Shown here: piece after piece, positions 6,245-48,476 of the stretch
Numbering within the stretch: the stretch's first letter is position 1
How the letters are laid out: every line of letters starts with the position of its first letter
DNA from: Candidatus Methylumidiphilus alinenensis
Lineage (GTDB): Bacteria > Pseudomonadota > Gammaproteobacteria > Methylococcales > Methylococcaceae
Direction: 5' to 3'
Assembly (NCBI GenBank): GCA_003242955.1
Contig: QJPH01000259.1
Span: forward strand, 1-49,422
DNA: 49,422 nucleotides
Program-made: the position numbers and the translations under genes
Notes under the pieces: generated by a model
Databases searched by the model: none
The model's input: the letters and a program-made list of their open reading frames with translations, nothing else
What the model was told of the DNA's origin: nothing

Positions 6245-11814
<5,570 letters not shown>

Positions 11815-22364: not shown

Positions 22365-22365
22365 G

Positions 22366-31566: not shown

Positions 31567-32363
31567 AGGTTCTCTGCCAGATTTAAGGTTTGAACGATTG
31601 CCTGCAAAAGCGGCGTTTGCGCCGTTTTGAGAAAAAAATGCCCTCCGGGGAACATCCGTTGGGTAAAAACAGAACTTGTATACGGATGCCATGCGGTAAG
31701 TTGGGCCCGATTGCTTAAGTGGTCTTGCAATCCGCCGAAGGCGCAGACCGGACAGGCCAGTGGCATGCCCGCAACGTAAGTGTAGGTTTCGTAAAGGGTA
31801 AAATCAGCACGCAACACCGGCAAAAATAAGCCCATCATTTCCGGGTCTTGCAATATGGCCTGGGGTATCTGCTGATAGCGGTTTTGCAGCGCGTCAATAA
31901 ACTCTCCATCCGGCAAACTATGCATCGGCGCGGGCCGGGGCGTTTCCGGGGCGGGACAGGCGGACAAAAAAAAATGAACCGGTTGATAGCGCGGGGGCAG
32001 GCATCGTAACCATTCAAAGGCGATGAGTGCGCCCAGGCTATGGCCGAATAGGGCAAAGGGTTTGTCCAGCCAAGGCACTAAGGCGGTAGAAAGCTGTTCG
32101 ACCAAATCAGGCATGCGGGTCAGCGGCATTTCGCCAAGACGATTTTCTCGACCCGGCAATTGAACGCTGCAAACCTCCACCGAGGAGGGTAGGGCTTTTG
32201 ACCAAGCACTGAAAATTGATGCGCCCCCGCCCGCGTAGGGAAAACAAAATAAGCGCAAATGCGCTTCTGTAGAGTGTCGCTGTACGGTCAGCCAAGGGCT
32301 GACAGAATTAACATTTATCAAAAGAGCCATCCTACTGTCATTGCTAATTGTTATGTGCGGCAT
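31563..32363 (-). CDS. Type II (editing) thioesterase
   Basis: This 266-residue alpha/beta-hydrolase belongs to the stand-alone thioesterases of NRPS/PKS clusters. It has FCFPYAGGG at about 40-48, the nucleophile in GHSLGA, and the catalytic His in PGGHFFL near the C-terminus. Such enzymes remove wrong or stalled acyl groups from carrier proteins in the cytosol. It is the first gene of the biosynthetic operon and overlaps the starter NRPS/PKS gene by 4 bp. I use ATG at 32363; an in-frame ATG at 32330 (MALLIN) is possible but its AGTAGG lies directly against the codon, too close to act well. A 6-bp inverted repeat overlaps the chosen start. Confidence 0.92.
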   Translation of the reverse strand: MPHITISNDSRMALLINVNSVSPWLTVQRHSTEAHLRLFCFPYAGGGASIFSAWSKALPSSVEVCSVQLPGRENRLGEMPLTRMPDLVEQLSTALVPWLDKPFALFGHSLGALIAFEWLRCLPPRYQPVHFFLSACPAPETPRPAPMHSLPDGEFIDALQNRYQQIPQAILQDPEMMGLFLPVLRADFTLYETYTYVAGMPLACPVCAFGGLQDHLSNRAQLTAWHPYTSSVFTQRMFPGGHFFLKTAQTPLLQAIVQTLNLAENL

Positions 32364-34072: not shown

Positions 34073-34846
34073 TTAAATAGTGTCTTGCAAAAACTCCACA
34101 ACGCCAAAACCCACGCCCTGCGGGTCATGCAATGCGGCAAAGCGCCCCATGCCCGGGATGTGAGTAGGCGGGATGGAGACGCCACCGCCCAATTTCTCGG
34201 CGCGGTCAGCCACTGCGGCGCAATCGGTCACGGCGAAATAGACCCGCCAAGCCGATGCTTGCCCTAATTCCTCCGCCATACCAGCCACGCGCTGTCCCGC
34301 CTGGCTAAACAGGGTGTAGCGTTCGCCCGCCATATCCTGCGTTTGCGCATCCCAACCTAGCAAGCGGGTGTAGAACGCCTCGACTGCCGACGGATCGGGA
34401 GTTGCCAATTCCACCCACGCCAGTGCGCCGGGCTGGTTGAGCAATTCCGCACCACGGTGCAGGCCCGGTTGCCACAGGTAGAAAGTGGCCCCGGACGGGT
34501 CTTGCACGGCGGAGGTCCGCCCTTGGTCGCCCACGTCAAACGGGCCGCGCAGCACCTTGCCACCCAGCGCCTTGACCTGTTCCGTGCAAGCATCGACATC
34601 CTCCACCCAAAGATACGGCATCCAAGCCACCGGATAACCAGCCGTCACCTGGCCCGCTGCCATTTCATATAAAGCAGCGACCTGTTTGCCGTCAACAGCG
34701 AATTTGACATAAGTCCATTGCCCCACTTGGGTGGCTTGAACTTCCCAGGCAAACAGGTCCGCGTAAAACGACTGCGCCGCTTCATAATGCGTCGTCCCCA
34801 AATCGACCCAAAAGAAGGTGTTAGGGGTATGCTGGGTTAATTCCAT
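34073..34846 (-). CDS. Two-domain VOC-family protein
   Basis: This 257-residue protein holds two glyoxalase-like repeats. The first runs from FFWVDLGTTHYEAAQSFYAD to about 125 (DPSGATFYLWQPG), the second from WVELATPDPSAVEAFYTRLLGW to the end (HDPQGVGFGVVEF). This tandem layout is common in VOC proteins annotated as glyoxalase or hydroxylase-like. The substrate is unknown; binding or isomerising the product or an intermediate is conceivable. ATG at 34846 overlaps the methyltransferase stop by one base (TAATG). A longer frame reaches 34939 but would run 31 Cys-rich residues over the upstream gene, so I reject it. It is the last gene of the tailoring run. Confidence 0.87.
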   Translation of the reverse strand: MELTQHTPNTFFWVDLGTTHYEAAQSFYADLFAWEVQATQVGQWTYVKFAVDGKQVAALYEMAAGQVTAGYPVAWMPYLWVEDVDACTEQVKALGGKVLRGPFDVGDQGRTSAVQDPSGATFYLWQPGLHRGAELLNQPGALAWVELATPDPSAVEAFYTRLLGWDAQTQDMAGERYTLFSQAGQRVAGMAEELGQASAWRVYFAVTDCAAVADRAEKLGGGVSIPPTHIPGMGRFAALHDPQGVGFGVVEFLQDTI

Positions 34847-35628
34847 TAGAGCACCTGATAGACATAGGTACGCGGTGTCAACGGCTCGCTCCAACCCGCA
34901 CCGGCATCCAACGCTTCGCTGACATCGACAGACTTCCATTGTCCAGCGGCCTCCAACTCCGCCAGTTTGTCGAGATAGCCCAGCTTCTCAGCACCGGTCA
35001 CAATCAGCGTGAAGATGACGTAGCCGCCCGGCTTTGTCACGCGGATCGGCTCGTTGAAGGCGACATCGACCGAAACCGCCGTCGGGTCGGGCAGCATGTT
35101 GATGCAGGTGGTCGCGTCAAACTCGCCGTCGGCGAAATCCCAAGGTTCGCCTAGAGCCTTCTGATAAAACGCCGTGTAGACGTTTTTCTTGCGCGCCTCT
35201 TCCAACATGCCAGGCGAAATGTCGAGTGCCTCCAGATTGCGGTAGCCGTGTTCGTTAAACAAAAATTTGCCCATCGAGCCTGTGCCTGCGGCGACATCCA
35301 AAATGCGGGCGTCTTTGGCGACGTATTTGGCGACATAGCTGGCGGCCAGCGCCACGCCGTCCATCATGCCGATGCCGTCGGTGATGGTTTCGTACAGGTG
35401 GGCGATCTGGCCGTAGCGCGCCCCGCGATCCGCTGTATCTTTGGCCGCCAGCAACCAAAGGCAAATGATTTCATATTCGGACTTATTGTAAATTGCTTCG
35501 ACTTCTTTGTAGCGGGCCAGCATTTCCTCGCAGGTCGCAGCCTCCAATACTTGGCTTAATTTCTCTGGTTCCGGCTCGCCGTTGGTAATCCAAGCCATGG
35601 CATCAAATTGCGTGGGTACTGTCGTCAT
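34846..35628 (-). CDS. Class I SAM-dependent methyltransferase
   Basis: This 260-residue protein has the SAM-binding motif ILDVAAGTG at 109-117, the acidic end of strand 2 in ALDISPGML, and later motifs FDATTCINML and KPGGYVIF. It resembles small-molecule methyltransferases of the WBSCR27 type. It is cytosolic and would methylate O, N or C on the cluster product or a precursor; the sequence does not say which. It has a good ribosome site (GAGGAT) and lies 36 bp after the SnoaL-like gene. Its stop overlaps the start of the VOC gene, so the two are translationally coupled. Confidence 0.88.
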   Translation of the reverse strand: MTTVPTQFDAMAWITNGEPEPEKLSQVLEAATCEEMLARYKEVEAIYNKSEYEIICLWLLAAKDTADRGARYGQIAHLYETITDGIGMMDGVALAASYVAKYVAKDARILDVAAGTGSMGKFLFNEHGYRNLEALDISPGMLEEARKKNVYTAFYQKALGEPWDFADGEFDATTCINMLPDPTAVSVDVAFNEPIRVTKPGGYVIFTLIVTGAEKLGYLDKLAELEAAGQWKSVDVSEALDAGAGWSEPLTPRTYVYQVL

Positions 35629-35664
35629 TACTTATATCCTCATGATTGTAAAAGTTGTGAAGGT

Positions 35665-36078
35665 TTACGGGGCTACTACGCCCAATTGGCGCAGAAAACC
35701 CAATTGGTCGGTGTTGGCCCACAGCTCGACGATTTTGCCGCCGTCCAGCCGGAATATCGCGATTTCGGTAACCGTAATTAATTTGTGCGTAGGGGACGCA
35801 CCCATGAATTCTCCTTGGTGCGTGCCGCGCCAGCCGCCGCGCAGCACCACCTTATCAGCGGCGGCCAGCAAATCCTCGATGATCACCTCGAAATCTGGAA
35901 AAGCCGCCCGGAAGCGGGCGACCATCCGTTTTTCCAATTCCAGGCTTTGCTCTTGGCCGGGTTCCAGCGTGTGGTTGAAAAAATCCGGGGCGTACAATTC
36001 GTCGATCAAGGCTACATTGCCGTTTTGCCAGACTTCTTCCAAGGCCCTGCGGACAATCTGCTTGTTTTGTTCGGACAT
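35665..36078 (-). CDS. SnoaL-like (NTF2-fold) ester cyclase family protein
   Basis: This 137-residue protein matches the SnoaL-like polyketide cyclase/ester cyclase group: an N-terminal helix with RRALEEVWQNGN, then YAPDFFNHT, FRAAFPDFEVIIEDLLA, DKVVLRGGWRGTH and the closing strand IAIFRLDGGKIVELWANTD. Members of this fold include aldol cyclases of aromatic polyketides, hydroxylases and many proteins of unknown role. In a modular cluster with no aromatic PKS it probably does something else, for example a cyclisation or dehydration. A clear AGAGGAG ribosome site precedes ATG at 36078, 21 bp after the NmrA-like gene. Confidence 0.87.
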   Translation of the reverse strand: MSEQNKQIVRRALEEVWQNGNVALIDELYAPDFFNHTLEPGQEQSLELEKRMVARFRAAFPDFEVIIEDLLAAADKVVLRGGWRGTHQGEFMGASPTHKLITVTEIAIFRLDGGKIVELWANTDQLGFLRQLGVVAP

Positions 36079-36099
36079 GGGTAACTCCTCTGGAAACCA

Positions 36100-36963
36100 T
36101 TATTGCCAAATAGCAGCATGGTCGTGGGCAAATTGGGCGAAGGTTATGGGATCACGCCCGGTCACTCCGCGCACGGTGGGATAAACCGCCTCCACCGCGC
36201 CGCTGCGCACGGTTTTGAACATCAGATCCAAAAACTCGATGGGACCAGGCCAGCCGCCCACTTCCGCGACCAATTGGCGCAGTTCTTCCAGCGAGGAGTC
36301 CACATAGCGAATGTCGCGCCCAGTAGCCTTGGCAATGGCCGCCGCCACGTCGGCAAAACTCAAGGATTCGCCGCCGGTCAAGGTATATTCCTGGCCTGCG
36401 TGGCTCTCTTCCGACAACGCGGCTGCGGCTACCGCCGCAATATCGCGGGCATCGATAAAACTCACCTTGCCGTCGCTGGCCGGCAAATAAATCCCGTCAC
36501 GCTGCTTGACGGTCGCCAGCACAAAGGGGGTTTGGAAAATCTGCATAAACCACGTCGGGCGCAGAATCGTGTACGCCACGCCGGAAGCCATCAGATGCTT
36601 TTCCACGCGACGATAGCCCACGGTATCGGGTGCCTTGTCCACATGGATGCCGGTCATCAGCACAATATGCTCGACACCTGCGGCTTTGGCCTGGTCAACA
36701 AACGGATTCAGCGCCAAGTCGGGCGCGGACTCATCGTCTTTGCACATCATGTAAAGCCGCTGCACTCCTGCCAGGGCCGGGGCAAAGGTCTCCTCTTGGT
36801 AAAAGTCGTAAGGCACGGCTTCCACGCCGGGTACTGACCGGTAAGCGGGCAACTCAGGCGGATAGACGGCTGCTTTGACCGGGATGCCCTTGGCAGCGAG
36901 TTCGCGCACAATTTGACCGCCCACATTGCCGGTTGCACCCAATACTAGAATTCTGTCATGCAT
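36100..36963 (-). CDS. NmrA-like NAD(P)-binding reductase (copy 2)
   Basis: This 287-residue protein has GATGNVG at 9-15, ILRPTWFMQ, SFIDARDIAA and LTGGES in the order of the NmrA/quinone-reductase-like group. It is similar along its whole length to copies 1 and 3 in this window, including the C-terminal FAQFAHDHAAIW. The role is likely an NAD(P)H-dependent reduction in product tailoring, but members can also be non-catalytic redox sensors. It is separated from copy 3 by a REP-like palindrome and is followed closely by the SnoaL-like gene. Confidence 0.88.
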   Translation of the reverse strand: MHDRILVLGATGNVGGQIVRELAAKGIPVKAAVYPPELPAYRSVPGVEAVPYDFYQEETFAPALAGVQRLYMMCKDDESAPDLALNPFVDQAKAAGVEHIVLMTGIHVDKAPDTVGYRRVEKHLMASGVAYTILRPTWFMQIFQTPFVLATVKQRDGIYLPASDGKVSFIDARDIAAVAAAALSEESHAGQEYTLTGGESLSFADVAAAIAKATGRDIRYVDSSLEELRQLVAEVGGWPGPIEFLDLMFKTVRSGAVEAVYPTVRGVTGRDPITFAQFAHDHAAIWQ

Positions 36964-37023
36964 TGTTAGTAATCCTGATCTTCAGTTATTGGTGATAGGG
37001 TGAATTGGATAAGCATAGAATTG

Positions 37024-37093
37024 ACGCAACACCCCGTTCGTGCTGAGGTATCGAAGGGATAGCGCGAACGGCCCAAGGTCGGCAATGTTGCGT
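37024..37093. repeat. REP-like palindrome between two reductase genes
   Basis: Outer arms ACGCAACA (37024-37031) and TGTTGCGT (37086-37093) are a perfect 8-bp inverted repeat. Inner arms CCGTTCG (37034-37040) and CGAACGG (37065-37071) are a perfect 7-bp inverted repeat. The core GTGCTGAGGTATCGAAGGG resembles a dispersed palindrome common in proteobacterial genomes. It may split the tailoring transcript or act as an attenuator. Confidence 0.65.
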
Positions 37094-37107
37094 AAGTCCA
37101 AAAATAT

Positions 37108-37971
37108 TTAAACGGCGGCATTCTTCCACACTGGCGCGTGTTTTCTCGCGAATTGCGCCAACGCGGTCGGCCTACGGCCTAGCAGTTCGGCAACAGTGGG
37201 CGTCACTATTTCATACCAACCGGCACGCACGGCGGCGAAGTACCACATCATGTAGTCGATTGAAGGCGGCATCATGCCGACCCTGGCATAAATCTCACGC
37301 ATTTCCGCTTCTGTGGCCGGTTCGTAACGCATCTCACAACCGGCGTTTTGCGCGATAATCTCGGCGCAATCGTCGAAATTGACAATTTCGTCGCCCGTCA
37401 TCTCATAAACCTGTCCCCAATGTCTTGGCTCGGTCAGGCAGACAGCCGCCACTGCGGCGATATCGTCCGTATCGATAAAACTTAGGCGGGCTTCCCCGAC
37501 CGGAGGGCAAAGCCGGTTGCGCTGGCGCGGGAGGTTCAAACCGCGGATGAGCAAGTTCATGAACCACGTCGGGCGCAGAATTGTGTATTCCAAGCCAGTG
37601 GATTGCAATAGTTTTTCCAGTTGAAAATGGCCGGGGTATTCCACGAGCCTTTCCACGCCAAACCCGGATATCAACACGACGTGCCGCACACCGCTTGCCT
37701 TCGCTTGCTCCAGCAAGGGCGAGGCTGTCGTGCATGGTTCCAAATCCAAACCGCGTGGCATTAGCACTAGACGATCAGCCCCAGCCATGGCGGGGGCATA
37801 GGTTTCCGGCTGGTCAAAATCAAAATCCACAGCTTCCACGCCTGAGTCGGTCGGATATTGACTGGGATGGCGCGTAGCGGCTTTAACCAATTCGCCTTGT
37901 TCCAGCAATAATCGCACTAGCACCCGCCCGATGTTGCCGGAGGCGCCAGTAACAAGAATAGACTTTGACAT
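37108..37971 (-). CDS. NmrA-like NAD(P)-binding reductase (copy 3)
   Basis: This 287-residue protein has the nucleotide motif GASGNIG near residue 8, ILRPTWFMN, SFIDTDDIAA and MTGDE, then an NmrA-type C-terminus (LAQFARKHAPVW). It belongs to the same group as copies 1 and 2 but is the most divergent around the middle (no IDARD; it reads IDTDD). The start is ATG at 37971, overlapping the P450 stop by one base (TGATG); the in-frame TTG at 37974 is less likely. Coupling to the P450 suggests that the two act on the same intermediate, for instance oxidation followed by reduction. That is an inference. Confidence 0.87.
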   Translation of the reverse strand: MSKSILVTGASGNIGRVLVRLLLEQGELVKAATRHPSQYPTDSGVEAVDFDFDQPETYAPAMAGADRLVLMPRGLDLEPCTTASPLLEQAKASGVRHVVLISGFGVERLVEYPGHFQLEKLLQSTGLEYTILRPTWFMNLLIRGLNLPRQRNRLCPPVGEARLSFIDTDDIAAVAAVCLTEPRHWGQVYEMTGDEIVNFDDCAEIIAQNAGCEMRYEPATEAEMREIYARVGMMPPSIDYMMWYFAAVRAGWYEIVTPTVAELLGRRPTALAQFARKHAPVWKNAAV

Positions 37972-39203
37972 CAATACCCCTTTAATTTAAAAACGACAGG
38001 CAGCGTGGTTGTACCTCGGATGGCGATGCTTCGACACCAGTCCAGGTCTTCCGTCCCTAGGCGCAACTGCGGCAAGCGGCGTAGCAAAGTGGGAAATACA
38101 ATTTGACCTTCAAGCCGCGCTAACGCCGCGCCCAAGCAAAAATGAACACCGTGACCAAATGCAAGATGACGGTTCGGTTGGCGGGTAATATCCAAGCGAT
38201 CAGGTTCGGGAAAGTGGGCGGGATCGCGATTTGCTGCTCCAACCATGCCGAAAACCTTCTGTCCGGCGCACATCACTTGACCGCCTAAGGTAAGATCAGT
38301 ACCGGTAATCCGCATGGCGAGCGGGCCTGGGCTTTCATAGCGCAAGAATTCCTCCACAGCGATTTCAATCAGTCCAGGATTTTCCTTGAGCATTTGACAT
38401 TGATCGGGATGTTTTAACAAAGCCAGCAAGCCATTACCAATCATGTGCATAGTGGTTTCTTGTCCACCAAACAGCAATAGCAGCAGATTCGACAATAACT
38501 CCTCGTCTTCAAGCATCCTCCCGTCTTCTTGCACTCTAACCAAACCGCTGGTCAAATCCCCACCTAAATTTTGCCGCCGTTCTGCGACCAGCACCGACAA
38601 ATAGGATTTGGCGGCATCAATTATTTGGTCAATCTCGTCAATCAGTTCTGGATCGTCAATATAGCCGATGTTGGCATCGCGCAGTTTCAATGCCCAAGCC
38701 TTGAAGAGATAGCGGTCGCTTGATGGCACACCGAGAATTTCGGCAATGACAGTGACGGCAAATGGGAAAGAAAAATCCCAGATGACATCCATTTCTTCGC
38801 CGTTTGCGGTTAATTCATCCAACAGTTCATCAGCGATAGCTTGAATGCGTGGGCGCAAATCCCTGATAGTGATTGCCTTGAATCCTTGACTGAGCAACTG
38901 GCGCAGCACTGTCTGGCGGGGCGGGTTTTGATAAATTACCCATCGCCCCAAGAATTCAGCAATCTTCTGCTGTTTGGCTTGTTGTTCCGTTGGCACATCT
39001 TCAGGAAAACTGACCGGGGAAACGACCAACATTTCCAGATGGTCGAGCATTGTTTTTACGTCGTCATAGCGAGTGAGTACCCAAGCTTCGAAACGTTCGT
39101 ACCAGTATACCGGGGTTTCGCTACGCATCCGCCCGTATATGGGATAGGGGTTGGCAAATGCTTCTGCACTCAGCAGGTTATATGAATCGGACGAGTGAGC
39201 CAT
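37971..39203 (-). CDS. Cytochrome P450 (bacterial class I type)
   Basis: This 410-residue soluble P450 has all core motifs: the I-helix GGQETT near 245 (acid is Glu rather than Asp), ExxR in EEFLRY near 286, and the haem-binding FGHGVHFCLG with Cys near 355. It would hydroxylate, epoxidise or couple a C-H or phenol of the product, with electrons from a ferredoxin/reductase pair that is not encoded here. It lies 23 bp after the sulfotransferase gene and is coupled to NmrA-like copy 3. No strong ribosome site precedes ATG at 39203; the AT-rich spacer includes TATAAT on the coding strand. Confidence 0.94.
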   Translation of the reverse strand: MAHSSDSYNLLSAEAFANPYPIYGRMRSETPVYWYERFEAWVLTRYDDVKTMLDHLEMLVVSPVSFPEDVPTEQQAKQQKIAEFLGRWVIYQNPPRQTVLRQLLSQGFKAITIRDLRPRIQAIADELLDELTANGEEMDVIWDFSFPFAVTVIAEILGVPSSDRYLFKAWALKLRDANIGYIDDPELIDEIDQIIDAAKSYLSVLVAERRQNLGGDLTSGLVRVQEDGRMLEDEELLSNLLLLLFGGQETTMHMIGNGLLALLKHPDQCQMLKENPGLIEIAVEEFLRYESPGPLAMRITGTDLTLGGQVMCAGQKVFGMVGAANRDPAHFPEPDRLDITRQPNRHLAFGHGVHFCLGAALARLEGQIVFPTLLRRLPQLRLGTEDLDWCRSIAIRGTTTLPVVFKLKGY

Positions 39204-39226: not shown

Positions 39227-40348
39227 TTAGTTCTCTAAAAATGTGCCGGGTACAATAAAGTCAGCCCGATTAATTTCGTCATGCCTGCCAAGCAATGTCT
39301 GCACTCGCGCACGCAAGTTGTCTATCTCATCTGGCTCGAGATGGCGCTGCTTTTCACGGGAAAGCGGACTGCTGGTTTGCGAGTCTTTGTTAAATGCCCG
39401 AAAGGCCAAGCCCACGGCGGACTCGGGCAAGCCGCAATAATCGAACAGCGCTGCCAGCGTCGCCTGCCGGTTGCCGACTAAATCTTCGTAGCGCAACGCG
39501 AACAGCGGAACCCCAAGGCGTTGGAGTTTCATATAGCTATCCAGGCAAGAAAGCCACCATAAGATATAAAAATCCATCACCGGGTCGGCGAAGTCGATGA
39601 TATCGGCATAGGATTTGATTAGCGGAACTACTTTTTGATAATAATCGAGATTAGCCTCCAACTCCGGCACGGTGTTGCGCAGATCGTCGCGAAACCGGGC
39701 AAAGGAGCAGATAAAGTCCACCGCATCGCGGTATAGAAAGACGAGTCGAGCCTGCGGAAACAATGCATGCATCAACCCTGCGTGGTGAATCGCCTGTGGG
39801 CGTGGCTTGATCACATAGTATATCGGTTCGATAGTCGGGGTCGGCTTGCACAATAACCGAGTGCTTCCGAACAAAACCTCGCGCAGGTCCTGGTCGCGGC
39901 TGCCGTCCGCCTCGCACATCAAGGCAATATCACAAAATACGTCAGGTTCTGACAAGCTAAGTGCCCCGTCTAATTGGCCAAACGCCTTGCTGAGCAGGGT
40001 AGAACCGCTCCTGCCCACGGAATAGATAATGATCAGATTCGCTCCAAGAGCCGGCAAGGACCGCGCCAACTCCGCCAGCGTGGAGTAAGGCATGCTAATC
40101 AGGTGTTGCGCATGGTCAAACTGGGCTTGGTACAAAAACGGCTTTTGCGACAATTCGATGCCCGGCGCGGTTTCAACGAAGATGGCCCGCCGGTTGGCAT
40201 CGTCCAGGCAATACAAGCTGATGTTCGGCTGCTTCAGGACAGTCTGGGGGTCGATGGTTTCGCCCTCAACGGACTGGAAATCTTCGATGCTAGCCGGCAC
40301 GACCGGATAGCGGGATTTGTTTTGAATGAGCAGTCTTTTAGTGTCCAT
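39227..40348 (-). CDS. PAPS-dependent sulfotransferase
   Basis: This 373-residue protein carries the 5'-phosphosulfate loop YSVGRSGSTLLSKAF at 109-123 and the 3'-phosphate segment LVFLYRDAVDFICSFARF, both typical of sulfotransferase folds. An N-terminal region of about 100 residues precedes the core. It should move sulfate from PAPS to a hydroxyl or amine in the cytosol; no signal peptide is seen. Its neighbours are an exported arylsulfatase, a P450 and, 6.4 kb away, an APS kinase that could supply PAPS. The phenol of a predicted tyrosine or the beta-hydroxyls are candidate acceptors. Family assignment is firm, acceptor is unknown. Confidence 0.9.
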   Translation of the reverse strand: MDTKRLLIQNKSRYPVVPASIEDFQSVEGETIDPQTVLKQPNISLYCLDDANRRAIFVETAPGIELSQKPFLYQAQFDHAQHLISMPYSTLAELARSLPALGANLIIIYSVGRSGSTLLSKAFGQLDGALSLSEPDVFCDIALMCEADGSRDQDLREVLFGSTRLLCKPTPTIEPIYYVIKPRPQAIHHAGLMHALFPQARLVFLYRDAVDFICSFARFRDDLRNTVPELEANLDYYQKVVPLIKSYADIIDFADPVMDFYILWWLSCLDSYMKLQRLGVPLFALRYEDLVGNRQATLAALFDYCGLPESAVGLAFRAFNKDSQTSSPLSREKQRHLEPDEIDNLRARVQTLLGRHDEINRADFIVPGTFLEN

Positions 40349-40459
40349 GAGTATCCATCGTGTTTTCCGCTATGCTATGCGTTGCGGTGCTTTTTCAGTA
40401 CCCAGCCGACCACCCCGCCGATAGGTCAGGGTGGGCGGCGAGGCAACTCTGCCTGGCGA

Positions 40460-42127
40460 TTATTCTGCCTTGCCGTGTCCCAGCGCCAAGATGAGGCCGT
40501 TGTCCTTCACGTACTTATCCCAGGCCGCCAACAGCTCTTGGTACTTTTCCGGCTGTTGCTGGGCAAGGTCATGCTCTTCAGCCAAATCGTCCACCAGGTT
40601 GTAAAGTTCCCACTGGCTACTGCCAAATGGCTTTTCCACCCAAACCAACTTCCACGGTCCTTGGCGCACGGCACCACGACCCCAGATTTCCCAAGCCATG
40701 GCTTGGTCAGGCGCATGGACAAACTCTTGTTTTCCCGTCAGGTAAGGCACGACCGACGAGCCTTGCAAAGGCAGCACATCATTGCCTGCATAGTTTTTCG
40801 GATAACTGACACCCGCCAATTCAAGAATCGTCGGAGCCACATCCAGCACATGGACAAAGCTTTGGCTGGTTTTGCCGGTGTGTTTTAGGCCCGGCCCACT
40901 GATAACCAAGGGTGTGCGAATGCCACCTTCATAGGTATACCCTTTGTCCATCCTAAACGGCCCCGCCCCGGCTTGCGCCCAGCCTGGACCGTACATGACA
41001 AATGAATTATGGTTGCCGAGGTTGGCGACACTGTTGTCATAGGTCTTGTTGATCCAGTCGGCACCATAAAAATCAATCGTCTCGTTATTCGGCCCGTTGT
41101 CCGAGGCAAAGACGATGATGGTATTGTCATACAGGCCACTCTCGCGCAGATGGTCCAACAGCCGACCCATCTGGTAGTCCGCATTGGCAATCATGGCGGC
41201 GTAGACTTCCATTTCACGGCTTTGGAACGCCTGTTCGTCCGGTGTCAGCTTGTCCCAAGGCTTGACTTCCTCTTCGCGGCGTGCCGTATCCGCATCTTTG
41301 GAGATAATGCCCATCTTTTTCATGCGTTGCACCCGCTCCGCCCGCAAGGCTTCATAGCCGGCCGCGTACTTGCCTTTGAATTTCGCAATCCAGTCGGCCG
41401 GCGCTTGCAGCGGATCGTGCGCGGCGGTGTAAGCCATATAGCCAAAGAAGGGCTTGCCGTCCGCTTTGTGAGCGTCAATAAACCGTATCATTTGGTTGGT
41501 GTAGAACTCGGACGAATAGACATCCGCCGGCTTCTCGGCCGCTTCGCCATTGTGCGTAAACGCCGTCTGGTTGCCTGCAAAAGCGGGTGTGGGTTCAAAA
41601 TGGCCGGAAAAACCATTTAGCACGGTAAAGGTTTCTTCAAACCCCCGGTTGTGCGGGTCGTTTTCCCCTTTGCCCAGATGCCATTTACCTGCCATGTACG
41701 TATGGTAGCCACTGTCTTTCAGCAACGAAGCGACGGTGATCACACGGTTGTTGAGATGGCCTTCATAACCGGGCTTGCCCTGTTGCTCGGGCAGCAAGGT
41801 CTCGGCCATGTTGCCAAAGCCAGTTTGATGGTTATCCACGCCGGTCAGCAGCATGGAGCGGGTGGGCGAACAACTGGCGGTCGGGTGGAAGTCGGTGAAC
41901 TTCACACCGTTCTTGGCCAAGCCCTCAATGGTTGGCGTCGGAATCTCACTGCCATAAGCGCCGATGTCGGCATAACCTACGTCATCCAGCAATATTACTA
42001 AGATGTTTGGTTTTTTCTGCTGCAACTTTGCCTGCGCACTTGGGACTGGCTTCTGCGCCAAAGCGGACTGCATGCCGGCCAGCAGCAGCCCGAACACCAC
42101 TAAACCCGAGATTACTTTCATTTTCAT
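40460..42127 (-). CDS. Exported arylsulfatase (formylglycine type I sulfatase)
   Basis: This 555-residue enzyme starts with a signal peptide (basic MKMK, hydrophobic VISGLVVFGLLLAGM, likely cut after SALA near 24), so it acts in the periplasm or outside. The sulfatase signature CSPTR has Cys86, the residue converted to formylglycine, with P88 and R90. Metal ligands include D48-D49 in ILLDDVGYAD and the later SDNGPN. It hydrolyses aryl or alkyl sulfate esters. The maturation enzyme is not in this window. GGAGG precedes ATG at 42127. It lies directly upstream of the sulfotransferase in the same transcription direction, an unusual make-and-break pair. Confidence 0.93.
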   Translation of the reverse strand: MKMKVISGLVVFGLLLAGMQSALAQKPVPSAQAKLQQKKPNILVILLDDVGYADIGAYGSEIPTPTIEGLAKNGVKFTDFHPTASCSPTRSMLLTGVDNHQTGFGNMAETLLPEQQGKPGYEGHLNNRVITVASLLKDSGYHTYMAGKWHLGKGENDPHNRGFEETFTVLNGFSGHFEPTPAFAGNQTAFTHNGEAAEKPADVYSSEFYTNQMIRFIDAHKADGKPFFGYMAYTAAHDPLQAPADWIAKFKGKYAAGYEALRAERVQRMKKMGIISKDADTARREEEVKPWDKLTPDEQAFQSREMEVYAAMIANADYQMGRLLDHLRESGLYDNTIIVFASDNGPNNETIDFYGADWINKTYDNSVANLGNHNSFVMYGPGWAQAGAGPFRMDKGYTYEGGIRTPLVISGPGLKHTGKTSQSFVHVLDVAPTILELAGVSYPKNYAGNDVLPLQGSSVVPYLTGKQEFVHAPDQAMAWEIWGRGAVRQGPWKLVWVEKPFGSSQWELYNLVDDLAEEHDLAQQQPEKYQELLAAWDKYVKDNGLILALGHGKAE

Positions 42128-42177
42128 TTTCCGCCCTCCACTTTGATGATTATTTTTTATCTAACACGAACTAAACC

Positions 42178-42203
42178 GCACTGCGGGGCAAACCCTGCCG
42201 TGC
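42178..42203 (-). terminator. Stem-loop after the flavin oxidase gene
   Basis: An 11-bp stem with one mismatch and one G-T pair (GCACTGCGGGG with CCCTGCCGTGC, loop CAAA) starts four bases past the oxidase stop on the minus strand. No U-run follows, so it is a weak terminator or a processing site rather than a sure transcript end. Confidence 0.35.
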
Positions 42204-42206
42204 CGC

Positions 42207-43808
42207 TTACGCTTCCCACTCATGCCGAAAATCATAGCGCCCCGGCGCTAGGATATCGTTGGGATCCAGTGCCTGCTTCAGTGTGCGCAGCAGATGGTTA
42301 TAATCATCTTGGGCTGGCGGCAGCAAATTCATTGCGTGTGTACCCAAACGGTACGGCAGATAACCGGCCGCGACAAGCCGTCCGAGCAAATCCTCGTAAC
42401 AGGCCATCGCACGTTCATCTTCCCCGGCTACCTCGCGATCATAGATGATCGCCGCCGTGACATAAATGTTGCGGGCATTAATGCAGTTCAAGGCCATGCT
42501 CGGCTCGTAGCCATGGGCCTGGCAGGTTTCTTCCACAATTGCCACGGACTCGCGCACACACGAGCCGACAAACGGCGTGACCGGTGCGCACCAGATGAAG
42601 CCGCAACGGTCCCGATCCGGATTCAGCGCTGCAGGCAGGGATTCCGATTTGCGCCAGTAGGTCATCGGAATGTCGGCATCGGAGGGGATGCCGCGTTGCA
42701 AATTGTTGACGAACCACTCCTGCACCTCGACCGGGTCATAGCCGGGCAGCATTTGCCGCAGTGCGTCAGGCTGTTGCACGATAGCCTCGTCAATGAAGTA
42801 CAGCGAACTGACATAGGGACGCAATGCCGCATCGACCATGTTGCGCTCGATCTGCGCCTGCTCAAGACTCTGCGAATACAACGCCACCTCGCAAAACCAC
42901 AGTCCGGCCTGCCATTTTTCCCGCAAGTTCTCGCGCAGATAGGCGGGCAGTGGCGTCTGTCCGCCAGTCTCCGCCCAAGGATATTGCTGCGAGTAGGAAA
43001 ACATGCGGTAGTCATTGCTGAGCACAAAAGCGGTGTCCAGCGTACCGCGCAGCAACAGTGTGCGCAAGGTATCGAACAAGGGTTCGATCTGACTTTCTTC
43101 CTCCAGGGTAAAAATGCATATTTGGAAATGCGAGGCTATGGGCGACAGCAAAAAGGTCATTTGCGTCACAATGCCCAAATTGGATTGGGAAAATAGCCCG
43201 TCCAGATACGGGCCTACGCCCCAGCGGTGGGTTTTCCCGGCTTGCGCCTGTTCGAAGCGCCCAAAGCCCGTGTGGATGCACTCGCCCGTCGGCAACACAG
43301 CCTCCGTCCCCAGCACATATTGAAAGCGGTCTCCATAAGGCCCCTTGGCTACGCCGCGGTCCATAGTGGCACCGATCAAGCTGGAATCACGCGGGCCACC
43401 GGTAACGCCGAGAAACAAGTCGGATTGCTTCTCACGCAGGAAATCATACACTTGCTGTTGGGTGACACCCGGCTCCACCGTGATGTAAGCCAAGTCTTCG
43501 TCAAACGAGACAATGCGGTCCATCCGCCCCAAATCCAGCACCACACAGTTATCCCTCACCGGAACACTTGAACCATAACCCCAATTTTTACCCGTGCTGA
43601 TCGGGTAGAGTGGGGTTTTGCACTGATTGGCAATTTTCACACAGGCTTGCACCTCGTCGCGATTAGCCGGGCGCAGGATGGCCGGTATCCGCTGCTCAGT
43701 AAGATAAGTTGCAGTCTCCGCCTGTTGCAGGTCGGCATCGGCGGTGATGACATGTTCTGTGCCGATGGCTTCTCGCCAAGCATAGAGGGCATTGGATAAA
43801 TTTTCCAC
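42207..43808 (-). CDS. FAD-dependent oxidase, vanillyl-alcohol oxidase/p-cresol methylhydroxylase type
   Basis: This protein (533 residues from the chosen start) has the PCMH-type FAD-binding domain: RPANRDEVQACVKIANQ, then YPISTGKNWGYGSS, VVLDLGRMDRI, VEPGVTQQQVYDFL and the long FLGVTGGPRDSSLIGATMDRG. The C-terminal cap and LKQALDPNDILAPGRYDF match 4-cresol dehydrogenase and vanillyl-alcohol oxidase. Those enzymes oxidise para-substituted phenols through a quinone methide. A tyrosine-derived p-hydroxyphenyl group would be a fitting substrate. I choose GTG at 43808 because GGAGAA lies five bases before it; the frame extends to GTG 43853 (MPFRC) without a convincing ribosome site. Confidence 0.88.
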   Translation of the reverse strand: MENLSNALYAWREAIGTEHVITADADLQQAETATYLTEQRIPAILRPANRDEVQACVKIANQCKTPLYPISTGKNWGYGSSVPVRDNCVVLDLGRMDRIVSFDEDLAYITVEPGVTQQQVYDFLREKQSDLFLGVTGGPRDSSLIGATMDRGVAKGPYGDRFQYVLGTEAVLPTGECIHTGFGRFEQAQAGKTHRWGVGPYLDGLFSQSNLGIVTQMTFLLSPIASHFQICIFTLEEESQIEPLFDTLRTLLLRGTLDTAFVLSNDYRMFSYSQQYPWAETGGQTPLPAYLRENLREKWQAGLWFCEVALYSQSLEQAQIERNMVDAALRPYVSSLYFIDEAIVQQPDALRQMLPGYDPVEVQEWFVNNLQRGIPSDADIPMTYWRKSESLPAALNPDRDRCGFIWCAPVTPFVGSCVRESVAIVEETCQAHGYEPSMALNCINARNIYVTAAIIYDREVAGEDERAMACYEDLLGRLVAAGYLPYRLGTHAMNLLPPAQDDYNHLLRTLKQALDPNDILAPGRYDFRHEWEA

Positions 43809-43877
43809 AGCTTCTCCAATCAATTTAAAAATACATTGACATCTAAATGGCACGGTTTCGTTTTCAACCGTATTGGG

Positions 43878-46025
43878 TCAATCCTTCGAAGTGTCGGCCT
43901 TTACCACGGGCAATTCCTCTGGATGCGAAAACAATGGCAAACTCGCTATGGTCAGTCCGGTCCCTAGGCCTACCGCCCAAATACCGGTTGCCCCGGCAAT
44001 GCCTACCAGTTTTGTGTAGGCGCTGGCAAGGACAAGTACGCCCGCACCTATGGCGGTCGCGAAACCAAAACGCAGATTACTGTCGAATTCACGGCCTAGG
44101 TCAAAAGGAAACAGCAGTTGCTCCAAGTTTTGCGTCATCAACACGATTTGCGCGGTGTCGGTGGCGGCGGTCGCCGCACCCCGCAGCGAGATCGAAACCT
44201 GCGCGGTTTTCAGCGCAATCGCGTCGTTGATGCCGTCACCAACAAAGCAGACGGTGCGACCTTCCTGTTGCAATTGCTCGACCATGGCCGCTTTGTGCTC
44301 AGGCAGGGTGTTGGCGAAGTAGCGCGGGATTCCCAACTCCTGCGCCATTTTCCGCGTTGGTTGCTCTTGGTCGCCGGAGATGATGACGATATCCAAACCA
44401 CGCCGCTGCAATTCGGCAATGACTGACTTGGCCTCGGGACGTAAAGTGGGACTGAGTTCGATGGCCCCGGCCAAGCGATCACCGACTGCCACCATCACCA
44501 TGGAATGGCCTTGCGCGTGACAGGACTCCATAACCGGGAGGATGGCCGAAGGGATGGCGATCCCTTCGAGTTCCATGTAACGCTCGCTACCCACGCGCAC
44601 TAGGATACCTTGCACCTCCACGCGGATACCGTAGCCCATCTCGTAACGACCTTGGTCAATGGAGGGGAGCACCAAGCCTTTCTGGGTTGCCGCTGTTTGA
44701 ATGGCGCGGGCAATCGGGTGCGTCTGCCGGTGTTCGGCGGCGGCGGCATAAGTCAGTAGGGTATTGGCATCCAAGTCAGAGCACAGATGAATTTGTGCCA
44801 CTTCGGGTTGTTCTTGGGTCAGCGTCCCGGTTTTGTCGAATATGACGGTATCCACGGTATGCAATAACTCCAGCGAGCGTCCGTCTTTGACCAATACGCC
44901 GTGCTTGGAGGCCACATTGAGGAAGTTGAGCATCGCAATTGGGCCGGTGATCTTGATGTTGAAGCCGACTGCGGAACCCAACACAGCAATCATTGCCTCA
45001 TAGCTGACCAGCGGCCAAGCCAACAAGCCCAACACCAAGGTCGGTGGTGCCAATTGATTTGCCAATCGCACTCCTTTTGCCTCTATCGACAATTGATAGC
45101 CCGTGGTGCTGTTCAGAATATTGCCGATTTGCGCGGCCACCGTCTGCTCTCCGGTTTTCTCGATGCGGACATGGATTTTTCCCGCCAACATGACAGTGGC
45201 GGCAAACACCGTATCGTCCACCGACTTTTCCGCAGGCTGCGCCTCGCCGGTCAACACATGCTGGTCGATGGTTGCCATGCCATCGACAATCACACCGTCC
45301 GCCGGCACGGTCTCACCGGCATTGACTACAATCAGGTCGCCGGCCTGCACACATTCGAAAGGCACCTCCACCTCGACTCCATCGACTAGCTTCCACAACG
45401 AACGTGGCTGCTGGCGAAATACATTGATCAAGCTCTTGTGTGAACGGTCTTGAGTGATCACGACCAGCTTTTCGCTAGAGAAAAAAACCACCAGGCAGAA
45501 ACCGCCGCTAACAAAAAAGCCCCCGAACCAGGTACCCACCAAACTGAGTGCCGATATCGTCGATATTTCAATGCGCTTTTTTCTGGCAAATACTCTGCTG
45601 GCCACAATGATTGGTCGGCGGGTGAGGTAGAGGCCCAGTGCAAACGAGGCTAGGTAGAGCGGTGGAAAGTAAGCTCTGGCGGTCATCGCCGTCGCCATGG
45701 TTAGGCAGGACAAGGCAATGTCGCGATTCAAGCCTTTTTCATAGTCGCTGATGTCCAAGGCATCTTGGCCTTCGGACAATTGTTGAATGAGTGTGTAGCG
45801 TTCTCTCCCAAACAACGGATCGACATGGTTTGCCACGAACTGCTGGAAATTCGAGTCAATCTTGACCAAGCCGCACTGCGCCTCGTCATAGAAACCGCCG
45901 AGTCCCGTCACCCCCCGGTCTAGCAAATCGCCCGCCGCCTTGATGCCCCCCTTCAATCCCTCAACAATTTTGAAGCCGAAAGAAAACCCACTATCGGATG
46001 CGGATGTTGGTCGCACGAAAGCCAT
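43878..46025 (-). CDS. P-type ATPase of heavy-metal-like architecture without CPC motif
   Basis: This 715-residue membrane protein has all catalytic motifs of a P-type ATPase: TGEAQP near 257, phosphorylated Asp in DKTGTLT near 392, and GDGINDA near 593, with hydrophobic pairs around 112-170, 330-360 and 660-700. The layout is that of P1B metal pumps, but the membrane motif that should read CPC or SPC reads TGPIAML near 361, and there is no N-terminal metal-binding domain; instead there are about 110 residues of amphipathic sequence. The transported ion cannot be guessed. AAGGAG precedes ATG at 46025, 51 bp after the DUF697 gene, which suggests a two-gene unit. It may be unrelated to the biosynthetic cluster. 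Confidence 0.88.
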   Translation of the reverse strand: MAFVRPTSASDSGFSFGFKIVEGLKGGIKAAGDLLDRGVTGLGGFYDEAQCGLVKIDSNFQQFVANHVDPLFGRERYTLIQQLSEGQDALDISDYEKGLNRDIALSCLTMATAMTARAYFPPLYLASFALGLYLTRRPIIVASRVFARKKRIEISTISALSLVGTWFGGFFVSGGFCLVVFFSSEKLVVITQDRSHKSLINVFRQQPRSLWKLVDGVEVEVPFECVQAGDLIVVNAGETVPADGVIVDGMATIDQHVLTGEAQPAEKSVDDTVFAATVMLAGKIHVRIEKTGEQTVAAQIGNILNSTTGYQLSIEAKGVRLANQLAPPTLVLGLLAWPLVSYEAMIAVLGSAVGFNIKITGPIAMLNFLNVASKHGVLVKDGRSLELLHTVDTVIFDKTGTLTQEQPEVAQIHLCSDLDANTLLTYAAAAEHRQTHPIARAIQTAATQKGLVLPSIDQGRYEMGYGIRVEVQGILVRVGSERYMELEGIAIPSAILPVMESCHAQGHSMVMVAVGDRLAGAIELSPTLRPEAKSVIAELQRRGLDIVIISGDQEQPTRKMAQELGIPRYFANTLPEHKAAMVEQLQQEGRTVCFVGDGINDAIALKTAQVSISLRGAATAATDTAQIVLMTQNLEQLLFPFDLGREFDSNLRFGFATAIGAGVLVLASAYTKLVGIAGATGIWAVGLGTGLTIASLPLFSHPEELPVVKADTSKD

Positions 46026-46076
46026 ACTGAAAGCTCCTTGAGCTAAAAGCGCAACTTGGATTGCGACAAGACTCGG

Positions 46077-46562
46077 TTACGGTTTATATTCGACAACGGT
46101 TTTAACCTCTGCGGCTCCTTCCTTAAGCTGTTTGGCGTAATAATCCTTGGCATGCTGCGGGTCAAAATCTAAAAATGTGCCGCCTGATTCAAAGTGCCGA
46201 ATAAACACTTTGCCAATGGCATAAGTGGAAGCACCGCCAAAAGCAGCCACACCGATCATACCCGCCGCCGTTCCCACGCCAGGTACTGATTTTGCTAGGC
46301 TTTTCGCCAGTTTAGACAAGTTGGAAGATAACGACAAAGGGACTCCGCCTCCCACCAAGGAAGCAATTAGCGATTTGCCGAGTTGTTCGGAAAATTGGAT
46401 TTGGTAAAGCGTGGCCAGCCGGTGTAGCATTTTTAGCTGAAGGCTTGATAGCGCGACAAGGTCCACGATAGGCAGCGGAATTGCACTGACCAGTACCGAT
46501 GCCAACGTATAATTCCTAACGATTTTAATGGCTTCGTTTGTGTCAATTACTATTTCTGCCAT
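46077..46562 (-). CDS. DUF697-family membrane-associated protein
   Basis: This 161-residue protein fits the DUF697 (YcjF-like) family: a hydrophobic N-terminal stretch LASVLVSAIPLPIVDLVALSSLQLKMLHRLA, then GKSLIASLVGGG and a second hydrophobic stretch VGTAAGMIGVAAFGGASTYAIGKVF. It probably sits in or on the inner membrane. The family has no firmly known biochemical role. It is the first gene of a unit with the P-type ATPase (51 bp apart), so it may be an accessory to it. GGAGG lies six bases before ATG at 46562. A similar C-terminal tail occurs as debris at 47442-47530. Confidence 0.82.
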   Translation of the reverse strand: MAEIVIDTNEAIKIVRNYTLASVLVSAIPLPIVDLVALSSLQLKMLHRLATLYQIQFSEQLGKSLIASLVGGGVPLSLSSNLSKLAKSLAKSVPGVGTAAGMIGVAAFGGASTYAIGKVFIRHFESGGTFLDFDPQHAKDYYAKQLKEGAAEVKTVVEYKP

Positions 46563-46762
46563 TTATCGCCTCCAACCCCATTACGCAGATGCGCAAAATA
46601 TTAAAATTTGATGACTGTCAACAAGCCGTGTACAGAATGGATTACAGCCACGCCTGACGAATTTTTTCATAAACAAACAGATTTTCACTAGATTCTTAGT
46701 CTATCATGTTATATAGATATTACGCAAACATTACAGGCAATCAGAATCATAGGGTTAGTTTT

Positions 46763-47359
46763 ATGAATACCAATATCCTTTGGCACCGCGCCATTGTGGA
46801 TAGGCAAAGCCGAGAACGGCAAAGCGGCCACAGAAGCTTCATACTCTGGTTCACCGGACTGTCAGGATCGGGCAAATCGACTCTCGCCCATCGCGTCGAA
46901 GAAATACTGCATCAGCGTGGCTGTAGGACTTATGTGTTCGATGGCGATAATGTCCGCCATGGTCTGTGCGCCGACTTGGGATTCGCCGACAAAGACCGTG
47001 CCGAAAACATCCGCCGCATCGGTGAAATGGGTAAGCTTTTTGTGGATTCAGGCTGCATAGCCCTAACCGCCTTCATCTCCCCGTTCCGGGCGGACCGCAA
47101 CAAAGTCCGCGCCTTGCTAGAACCCGGGGACTTCATCGAAATTTACTGCCAAGCATCTTTGGATGTCTGCGAACAGCGCGATGTCAAGGGACTGTACCAA
47201 AAAGCCAGGCTTGGCAAGATTGCAGAATTCACCGGCATATCCTCGCCATACGAGGAACCTGAAAGCCCAGAAATGCTGGTGATGACAGGGGAACAGGACG
47301 TTGATACCTGCGCAGGTCAAATCATTGAGTATCTGGAGCAAACCGGCAAAATCCGGTAG
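46763..47359 (+). CDS. cysC: Adenylylsulfate (APS) kinase
   Basis: This 198-residue enzyme phosphorylates adenosine 5'-phosphosulfate with ATP to give PAPS, the donor for sulfotransferases. The Walker A motif is GLSGSGKST at 32-40, followed by FDGDNVRHGL at 59-68, the FADKDRAENIRR segment, TAFISPFRADR and CEQRDVKGLYQKAR, all standard for CysC. The length is normal. I place the start at ATG 46763 (MNTNILWH), with AGGG eight bases before it and the typical CysC N-terminus; the frame opens 57 bases earlier. It stands alone on the plus strand, divergent from the DUF697/ATPase pair. No sulfate adenylyltransferase (CysD/CysN) is visible, so APS must come from elsewhere. Confidence 0.95.
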   Translation: MNTNILWHRAIVDRQSRERQSGHRSFILWFTGLSGSGKSTLAHRVEEILHQRGCRTYVFDGDNVRHGLCADLGFADKDRAENIRRIGEMGKLFVDSGCIALTAFISPFRADRNKVRALLEPGDFIEIYCQASLDVCEQRDVKGLYQKARLGKIAEFTGISSPYEEPESPEMLVMTGEQDVDTCAGQIIEYLEQTGKIR

Positions 47360-48271: not shown

Positions 48272-48476
48272 GGTCAGAACACCTGTCCCCTTGGTCTAAC
48301 CCAAGCGGTGGGTGTTAATGCTGAACAGCTTATAAATCAAAGAGGTGTCGACCATATGACACTGAAAAACGGCTGATGGCTTGGTGTGGCGGCTGGATTC
48401 TGAGATTATACCTTTTTTCGTCAGCCTAACCTTAACACTTGCCACCTTTGCCTGCCCAACCGAACGGTTCGAACCC

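What the first reader, a model, noticed from the sequence alone, without database searches (positions are those of the whole stretch)
39227..47359. Sulfate on, sulfate off: sulfotransferase, APS kinase and exported arylsulfatase in one locus
The cytosolic sulfotransferase and PAPS-making kinase could mask a hydroxyl with sulfate, and the arylsulfatase with a signal peptide could unmask it outside the cytoplasm. This would be a self-protection prodrug scheme, comparable in logic to acyl or glycosyl prodrugs of other antibiotics but based on sulfation. The adjacency of making and breaking enzymes is seen; the scheme is inferred.
Basis: partly seen in the sequence, partly recalled or inferred. 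Interest (0 to 1): 0.82.

Follow-up and report, generated by a model that had tools for sequence, protein, structure and literature searches.

The report
Possible sulfate-capped prodrug gene cluster
A bacterial gene cluster that probably builds a small molecule ending in a tyrosine-derived phenol also carries, side by side, an enzyme that could cap it with sulfate and an exported enzyme that could take the cap off again, a bacterial echo of the sulfate-activated defences known from sea animals, but not yet tested.

Summary
A PAPS-type sulfotransferase (39227-40348) and an AtsA-like arylsulfatase with signal-peptide-like N-terminus and complete catalytic set (40460-42127) are adjacent, same strand, in a co-directional NRPS-PKS cluster. 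The third member is weak: the APS kinase (46706-47359) is divergent, has a 93% DNA-identical copy beside a Rep3 gene in a congener without the sulfotransferase, and a paralogue in the same genome.

Gene 42207-43853 is a vanillyl-alcohol-oxidase-type flavoprotein in a clade repeatedly linked to FeeM-type N-acyl-amino-acid synthases. With a terminal NRPS module of tyrosine-like code plus thioesterase, this predicts an N-acyl-tyrosine oxidatively decarboxylated to a 4-hydroxystyryl amide, as reported for chondrochloren and FeeG. That gives the arylsulfatase a phenol to act on; the oxidase needs it free, so sulfation should come last. Sulfated relatives activated by desulfation are known from a marine hydroid. 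The mask/unmask scheme is better motivated, but unproven: the adjacent pair was found nowhere else in the genomes sampled, and no sulfatase-maturing enzyme or exporter was identified. A scavenging sulfatase beside a tailoring sulfotransferase remains a strong rival.

The parts
39227..40348 (-). PAPS-type sulfotransferase (Sulfotransfer_3) with about 100-residue N-terminal extension; proposed sulfate-on enzyme
40460..42127 (-). AtsA-like type I arylsulfatase with signal-peptide-like N-terminus and CSPTRS formylglycine site; proposed sulfate-off enzyme
42207..43853 (-). VAO/PCMH-family flavoprotein, proposed FeeG/CndG-like oxidative decarboxylase of the N-acyl-tyrosine product; phenolate residues Y93, Y501, R502
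2060..6244 (-). Terminal NRPS protein: TubC_N docking, C-A-T-TE; A-domain code read as DASTIAAVCK, tyrosine-like (positions and assignment recalled)
6241..11814 (-). PKS module KS-AT-DH-KR-ACP
11822..12769 (-). short-chain dehydrogenase
12802..17481 (-). PKS module KS-AT-KR-ACP
17478..22496 (-). PKS module KS-AT-KR-ACP
22366..31692 (-). Hybrid NRPS-PKS: partial C domain, A, PCP, KS-AT-DH-ER-KR-ACP
31563..32363 (-). thioesterase, type II by position and size (my reading)
34073..39203 (-). Tailoring block: glyoxalase-like, methyltransferase, SnoaL-like, two NmrA-like, cytochrome P450
43878..46562 (-). P-type (IB) ATPase and DUF697 protein; membership in the cluster uncertain, an ATPase-DUF697 pair also occurs in congener G005 (L209), which has no match to the sulfotransferase or flavoprotein
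46706..47359 (+). APS kinase, divergent; probably general PAPS supply, not a dedicated cluster gene

Best explanation
The cluster makes a chain whose last unit is tyrosine; the terminal thioesterase releases an N-acyl-tyrosine acid (inferred). The flavoprotein oxidises the free phenol to a quinone methide that loses CO2, giving a 4-hydroxystyryl amide (inferred from family, clade and neighbours; the reaction itself is reported for chondrochloren and FeeG). The cytoplasmic sulfotransferase then caps a hydroxyl, most likely this phenol, with sulfate from PAPS (inferred). The sulfated, polar form is exported by an unidentified route, and the arylsulfatase outside the cytoplasmic membrane removes the sulfate and restores the free phenol (inferred). 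The sulfate would act as a temporary cap for self-protection or timing. Shown by sequence only: gene order, families, conserved catalytic residues, clade membership of the flavoprotein.
For: Sulfotransferase and sulfatase adjacent, co-directional and in the same run of genes as the assembly line. Complete AtsA-type catalytic set, and 36 extra N-terminal residues that read as a signal peptide, ahead of where the best solved relative's chain starts. Terminal A-domain code one residue from a recalled tyrosine code. The flavoprotein belongs to the VAO/PCMH family of para-alkylphenol oxidases and keeps the phenolate triad (roles in PMC5646868, passages). In a 31-row tree it lies in a 15-row group with 100/100 support. 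A FeeM-like gene lies within 2 kb in 5 of the 14 other rows of that group and at 7-11 kb in 3 more, against 0 of the 16 rows outside it. Literature: FAD-dependent oxidative decarboxylation of an acyl-tyrosine in chondrochloren (PMC3039461, section 9 read) and by FeeG (PMC8762209, passage). Sulfated tridentatols lack fish-deterrent activity and the active free forms appear on crushing (PMC3039461, passage); psammaplin A against its sulfate is similar (PMC10055925, passage). Sulfation of phenols is reported to decrease toxicity (PMC6731281, abstract and passages).
Against: One cluster in one genome. Sulfotransferase matches: 5 of 101 relatives and 19 of 369 class genomes, own included; of the 7 neighbourhoods examined (4 class genomes, 2 Anaerolineae, 1 Acaryochloris plasmid) none has an arylsulfatase, flavoprotein or NRPS/PKS match. 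A few genomes hold weak partial sulfotransferase and arylsulfatase matches far apart: G266 about 40 kb, G013 and G022 over 180 kb. Arylsulfatase neighbourhoods: 0 of 12 examined (of 21 listed) have the sulfotransferase. No canonical formylglycine-generating enzyme recognised in G000, no anaerobic maturase above cut-off. No exporter other than the P-type ATPase among the 26 window ORFs scanned by Pfam. The sulfotransferase could act on an aliphatic hydroxyl. Its structure model failed (pLDDT 36.6). CndG and FeeG sequences were not compared. 6 of the 14 other rows in the flavoprotein's group have no FeeM nearby, and the rows nearest the window's in the tree (G332, Megaera, G278) have lost parts of the phenolate triad.
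Confidence: 0.38

Rival explanations
1. The sulfotransferase is an ordinary tailoring enzyme that makes a sulfated end product, and the arylsulfatase is a general periplasmic sulfate-ester hydrolase that came to lie beside it by gene traffic and does not act on the product.
For: AtsA-like sulfatases are common in unrelated settings: 17 of 369 class genomes at E<=1e-80, own included, 691 plasmid records, an Azospirillum copy in a catabolic-looking neighbourhood with its own maturase. No sampled relative shares the adjacency. The contig ends carry transposase-like ORFs (my reading).
Against: The sulfatase lies between the sulfotransferase and the flavoprotein, co-directional, gaps 111 and 79 bases, with GC3 0.656 against 0.650 and 0.647 for these neighbours and 0.64-0.66 for the PKS genes; lying by chance next to the only sulfotransferase that this query matched in the genome seems unlikely.
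Confidence: 0.33
2. The arylsulfatase is an off switch or recycling enzyme: the sulfated compound is the active form, and the exported sulfatase inactivates or recovers it, protecting the producer or its periplasm.
For: Same gene order; sulfated natural products can be the active form (general knowledge).
Against: Precedents among tyrosine-derived phenols run the other way, sulfate inactive and free phenol active.
Confidence: 0.1
3. Sulfate is a leaving group: the sulfotransferase activates a beta-hydroxyl for elimination or cyclisation, in the manner of the curacin olefin-forming step (recalled), and the sulfatase is incidental.
For: KR-only modules leave hydroxyls.
Against: The sulfotransferase is a free-standing protein, not fused in the assembly line; the terminal protein is C-A-T-TE, unlike the recalled ACP-ST-TE order; and an exported arylsulfatase has no role here.
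Confidence: 0.06
4. The flavoprotein is a catabolic or unrelated phenol oxidase and the product carries no decarboxylated tyrosine; sulfation concerns another hydroxyl.
For: Its best relatives are only 33-47% identical; three rows of its group have lost parts of the phenolate triad and six have no FeeM nearby.
Against: Its group is separated from the 16 other rows with 100/100 support, FeeM linkage is confined to its group, its own triad is intact, and a tyrosine-like module lies in the same cluster.
Confidence: 0.13

Closest known systems
Chondrochloren cluster of Chondromyces crocatus (CndG)
   Same: NRPS-made acyl-tyrosine oxidatively decarboxylated by an FAD enzyme to a dehydrotyramine (styryl) amide (PMC3039461, section 9); hybrid NRPS-PKS (recalled)
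   Different: Chondrochloren is chlorinated by a halogenase (recalled); no halogenase family hit in the 26 window ORFs scanned by Pfam. No sulfotransferase or sulfatase is recalled for it
Fee-type N-acyl-tyrosine clusters (FeeM, FeeG)
   Same: Flavoprotein group repeatedly beside FeeM-like genes; FeeG reaction reported (PMC8762209, passage)
   Different: Here an NRPS-PKS, not FeeM, would supply the acyl-tyrosine; sulfur genes added
Tridentatol and psammaplin activated defences of marine animals
   Same: Tyrosine-derived phenols whose sulfates are inactive precursors of the active free forms (PMC3039461, passage; PMC10055925, passage)
   Different: Animal-derived; no genes named in the passages seen; here bacterial genes for both steps in one cluster
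Bacterial prodrug self-protection (acyl-peptide caps with periplasmic peptidases; phosphocalyculin), recalled
   Same: Mask added inside, removed outside by a co-encoded enzyme, as logic
   Different: Cap would be sulfate; export and protection not shown
Pseudomonas aeruginosa arylsulfatase AtsA (PDB 1hdh; name and organism recalled)
   Same: Best solved relative, ten of ten listed residues kept
   Different: Window protein has an added signal-peptide-like N-terminus and lies in a biosynthetic cluster

Membership tests
Type I (formylglycine) arylsulfatase | Sulfatase fold with C-x-P-S/T-R motif and catalytic/metal residues | tested here: met
   CSPTRS, ten of ten AtsA residues; Pfam 208.6 bits
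Type I (formylglycine) arylsulfatase | Maturation of Cys to formylglycine by FGE or anaerobic maturase in the same genome | tested here: inconclusive
   64 FGE-domain matches; none of the 10 loci examined shows the two-cysteine motif, the other matches were not examined for it; an FGE-like query with that motif gives at best a partial 84-bit hit; anaerobic maturase model 154.6 bits against cut-off 349.45
PAPS-dependent sulfotransferase | Sulfotransferase profile with 5'-phosphosulfate and 3'-phosphate motifs | tested here: met
   Sulfotransfer_3 and _1 over cut-off; motif residues G112, R113, G115, S116, T117, R207, S215 invariant in the 3-row alignment; motif roles recalled
PAPS-dependent sulfotransferase | Fold and catalytic base | tested here: inconclusive
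   AlphaFold model unusable, pLDDT 36.6; no solved relative at E<=0.1 by single sequence, best E 0.067 by profile, a sulfotransferase
FeeG/CndG-type acyl-tyrosine oxidative decarboxylase | VAO/PCMH-family flavoprotein with phenolate-binding Tyr, Tyr, Arg | tested here: met
   that this defines the type is my inference from the reported mechanism
FeeG/CndG-type acyl-tyrosine oxidative decarboxylase | Linked to a source of N-acyl-tyrosine | tested here: met
   Terminal tyrosine-like NRPS module here (code recalled); FeeM-like gene near 8 of 14 other group rows against 0 of 16 outside
FeeG/CndG-type acyl-tyrosine oxidative decarboxylase | Sequence kinship to CndG or FeeG themselves, and activity | not tested
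   Sequences not at hand; the CndG paper is not in the library
Chondrochloren cluster | Halogenase (recalled) | tested here: not met
   No halogenase among the Pfam hits of 26 window ORFs or NCBIfam hits of 10; so not filed as a chondrochloren cluster
Prodrug self-protection system | Masking and unmasking enzymes co-encoded, unmasking one exported | tested here: met
   Gene order and signal-peptide-like N-terminus; export itself not tested
Prodrug self-protection system | Both enzymes act on the product; masked form less harmful to the producer | not testable with these tools
   needs product and assays
Prodrug self-protection system | Conserved in related clusters | tested here: not met
   No second genome with the adjacent pair in the samples; no close relative of the whole cluster was found, so the test is of limited power

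The most novel reading that the evidence does not exclude
A bacterial cluster that encodes, start to finish, a sulfate-capped protoxin: a hydroxystyryl amide made from tyrosine, capped inside the cell by a sulfotransferase and uncapped outside by its own arylsulfatase, a prodrug chemistry so far known to me only from marine animals.
Probability: 0.3. Interest if true: 0.85.

Novelty: new variant of a known kind. Interest (0 to 1): 0.57.

Why it matters
Prodrug resistance in producers is recalled for acyl, glycosyl and phosphate caps. A sulfate cap with a dedicated exported sulfatase would add a cap, explain why a sulfatase can be a biosynthetic gene, and give a genetic handle on the sulfate-activated phenolic defences that have been described chemically in animals. 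It also warns that extracts could show the free phenol and hide the sulfated form, or the reverse.

Tried and rejected
APS kinase as a dedicated cluster gene: rejected on orientation, presence in 35 of 41 genomes (own included), a second copy in G000, and a 93% DNA-identical copy next to a Rep3 initiator in G004, a genome with no sulfotransferase match.

Trio conserved beside NRPS/PKS: looked for and not found. Sulfotransferase: 5 of 101 relatives, 19 of 369 class genomes, own included, many weak and partial. Four class genomes match over most of the length (G349, G113, G237, G110): beside pantothenate kinase and biotin ligase genes; beside a second sulfotransferase and a cytidylyltransferase; beside TldD/PmbA-type metallopeptidase genes; and inside an ORF with a glycosyltransferase domain. 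Two Anaerolineae relatives lie by an enoyl-CoA hydratase-like gene (my reading). Arylsulfatase: 17 of 369 at E<=1e-80 and 23 of 101 relatives at E<=1e-30, own included. Of 12 class neighbourhoods examined (of 21 listed), none has the sulfotransferase; one lies beside a PUFA-type synthase (G430), one beside a weakly similar flavoprotein (31% over residues 23-295) and an AMP-ligase-like gene (G220:C31), one near an AMP-ligase-like gene (G440); I took these as coincidence. Flavoprotein: 15 of 369 at E<=1e-30, 25 of 101 relatives, own included; no sulfotransferase in the fetched neighbourhoods. Three plasmid clusters with a similar terminal NRPS (of 2799 matching records) have no match to the sulfotransferase, sulfatase or flavoprotein in the stretches fetched.

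Structure of the sulfotransferase: unusable model. Viral contigs: no relative. IS-bearing right end in plasmids: no match. Papers: the listings (12 papers; none; 3; 6; 25 of 85; 15), seen as titles and abstract starts, showed no bacterial cluster with a sulfotransferase/sulfatase cap; most subscription papers are not held, so this is weak. The tyrosine code string was not found in the library; its assignment is recalled.

Tree rows: 29 of the 49 non-own flavoprotein places listed plus one plasmid copy; the 20 left out are further copies in the same genomes or members of one genus (g20).
Full report
What is there. The window is a whole contig (C13, 49422 bases) of a 6.57-Mb, 597-contig genome, G000. 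From 46562 down to 2060 most ORFs with family matches lie on the minus strand: DUF697, P-type ATPase, a flavoprotein, an arylsulfatase, a sulfotransferase, a P450, two NmrA-like proteins, a SnoaL-like protein, a methyltransferase, a glyoxalase-like protein, a thioesterase and a five-protein NRPS-PKS line with a short-chain dehydrogenase. Two plus-strand genes (32631-33916, glyoxalase-like and NmrA-like) interrupt the run. The APS kinase is real too, but divergent and beyond the ATPase and DUF697 genes.

The APS kinase is not specific. Matches occur in 35 of 41 genomes, own included; G000 has a second on C339. The closest relative, in congener G004, is 93% identical in DNA over 623 coding bases; beyond the gene only a 102-base stretch (46620-46721) nearby matches that locus, inverted and at 78%. 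It lies next to a Rep3 replication initiator. G004 has no sulfotransferase match at E<=0.001. I read it as general PAPS supply that has moved on its own.

The arylsulfatase. It aligns with the solved arylsulfatase 4cxk/1hdh (P. aeruginosa AtsA, recalled) from residue 37 to 546. Mapping the printed alignment, ten of ten active-site residues of that enzyme (list recalled) are kept. The 36 residues before the match look like a Sec signal peptide. Among relatives (family and order) the nearly full-length matches are 38% identical or less, partial pieces up to 45%, while the best in the class sample reach 49% over nearly full length, which suggests acquisition from outside the family (inference). 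Maturation is open: a query with an Azospirillum plasmid protein annotated as formylglycine-generating enzyme family and carrying the two-cysteine motif finds only partial SUMF-like paralogues in G000 (best 84 bits), and the anaerobic maturase model stays under its cut-off. G000 does hold three other sulfatase ORFs with a cysteine motif among the loci fetched.

The sulfotransferase. Pfam places it in Sulfotransfer_3. Relatives that match over most of the length are few and 29-36% identical, and it has no solved relative by single-sequence search at E<=0.1. Its substrate cannot be predicted.

The overlooked neighbour. The gene 42207-43853 encodes a VAO/PCMH-family flavoprotein whose solved relatives include p-cresol methylhydroxylase, eugenol oxidase and vanillyl-alcohol oxidase. 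Tyr93, Tyr501 and Arg502 sit in the GYG and YR motifs that I equate with Tyr108, Tyr503 and Arg504 of vanillyl-alcohol oxidase (equation from motif context; proposed roles in substrate deprotonation from PMC5646868, passages). In a tree of 31 rows it lies on one side of a 100/100 branch with 14 other rows; 16 rows, which I take to be catabolic types without having tested it, lie on the other. Its exact neighbours inside the group (G332, Megaera, G278) are long-branched, unsure, and have lost parts of the triad. FeeM-like genes lie within 2 kb of 5 of the 14 other rows (G002, G003, G015, G034, G184) and at about 7.6-10.3 kb in 3 more (G085, G087, G100), against 0 of 16 rows on the other side, two of which have neighbourhoods under 9 kb. 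Six of the eight pass the Pfam FeeM cut-off; G087 and G100 do not, though all eight pass the related Acetyltransf_5 cut-off. Fisher p is 0.0005 for 8 of 14 and 0.014 for 5 of 14; rows are related (G002 with G003, G015 with G034), so these p-values are too small. Six group rows have no FeeM: G008, G066, G046, G278, G332 and a Candidatus Megaera plasmid, two of these on contigs under 7 kb. The tree used 29 of the 49 non-own places listed, plus the plasmid copy.

Product prediction. The terminal protein reads docking-C-A-T-TE. Its code by motif position is DASTIAAVCK (positions recalled), one residue from the tyrosine code DASTVAAVCK, which is recalled and was not found in the paper library. The first A domain reads DALFLGLVVK, unassigned. 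An acyl-tyrosine acid plus this flavoprotein suggests the reaction described for chondrochloren: oxidation to a quinone methide and loss of CO2 to a dehydrotyramine (PMC3039461, section 9), also reported for FeeG (PMC8762209, passage). Because that chemistry starts at the free phenol, sulfation of the same oxygen would have to follow it. This is inference.

Why the cap idea gains. A 4-hydroxystyryl amide gives the arylsulfatase a natural aryl-sulfate substrate. In the hydroid Tridentata the sulfated tridentatols lack deterrent activity and the active free forms appear on crushing (PMC3039461, passage). A review cites the suggestion that tyrosine derivatives are predisposed to activated defences, and reports antifeedant activity of psammaplin A compared with its sulfate (PMC10055925, passage). 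Sulfation of phenols is reported to increase solubility and decrease toxicity in biological production (PMC6731281, abstract and passages).

Why it may be wrong. It is one cluster. In no other genome sampled were the sulfotransferase, sulfatase and flavoprotein seen side by side; G266 holds weak partial sulfotransferase and arylsulfatase matches about 40 kb apart on one contig. No exporter is evident among the ORFs scanned. The sulfotransferase may act on another hydroxyl, and the sulfatase may be a scavenger. I therefore hold the full scheme at 0.38, the scavenger-plus-tailoring rival at 0.33, and regard the tyrosine plus oxidative decarboxylation part as more likely than not (about 0.7).

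Classification. It works like a prodrug self-protection system, but membership is not shown: shared substrate and protection are untested, and conservation was tested and not met in these samples. It is not filed as a chondrochloren cluster, because no halogenase was found. If true it is a new variant of known prodrug logic.

Noticed in passing
L192 8625-12261 (G002:C280) and L194 11490-15271 (G003:C191): Two congeners carry two FeeM-like genes beside a flavoprotein 45-47% identical to the window's: likely small N-acyl-tyrosine styryl-amide clusters in the same genus.
   Followed up: partly
G000, whole genome: 64 FGE-sulfatase (SUMF) domain matches, many in ORFs of 600-1700 aa; none of the ten loci examined has the two-cysteine catalytic motif.
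   Followed up: partly
window 43878-46562; L209 7179-13882 (G005:C195): A P-type ATPase with a DUF697 gene recurs in a congener without the sulfotransferase or flavoprotein, there about 2 kb from a 34%-identical arylsulfatase; G000 has 7 ATPase matches at E<=1e-60.
   Followed up: partly
L042 8540-10278 (G004:C69): APS kinase directly downstream of a Rep3 replication initiator, suggesting a plasmid-borne APS kinase.
   Followed up: partly
window 1-1429 and 48274-49422: Transposase-like ORFs at both contig ends (my reading; left one resembles IS1634 types, recalled); 48274-48687 is 87% identical to a stretch in G004:C203 next to an APS kinase fragment.
   Followed up: no
L149 930-10981 (G430:C5): Lipoprotein-like arylsulfatase upstream of a PUFA-type synthase pair.
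   Followed up: partly
L142 7287-12665 (G220:C31): Arylsulfatase 49% identical to the window's beside a weakly similar FAD oxidase and an AMP-ligase-like match.
   Followed up: no
L010 (G025:C89): An ORF of 1153 aa with glycosyltransferase-like sequence (my reading) carries a stretch 45% identical to sulfotransferase residues 39-144.
   Followed up: no
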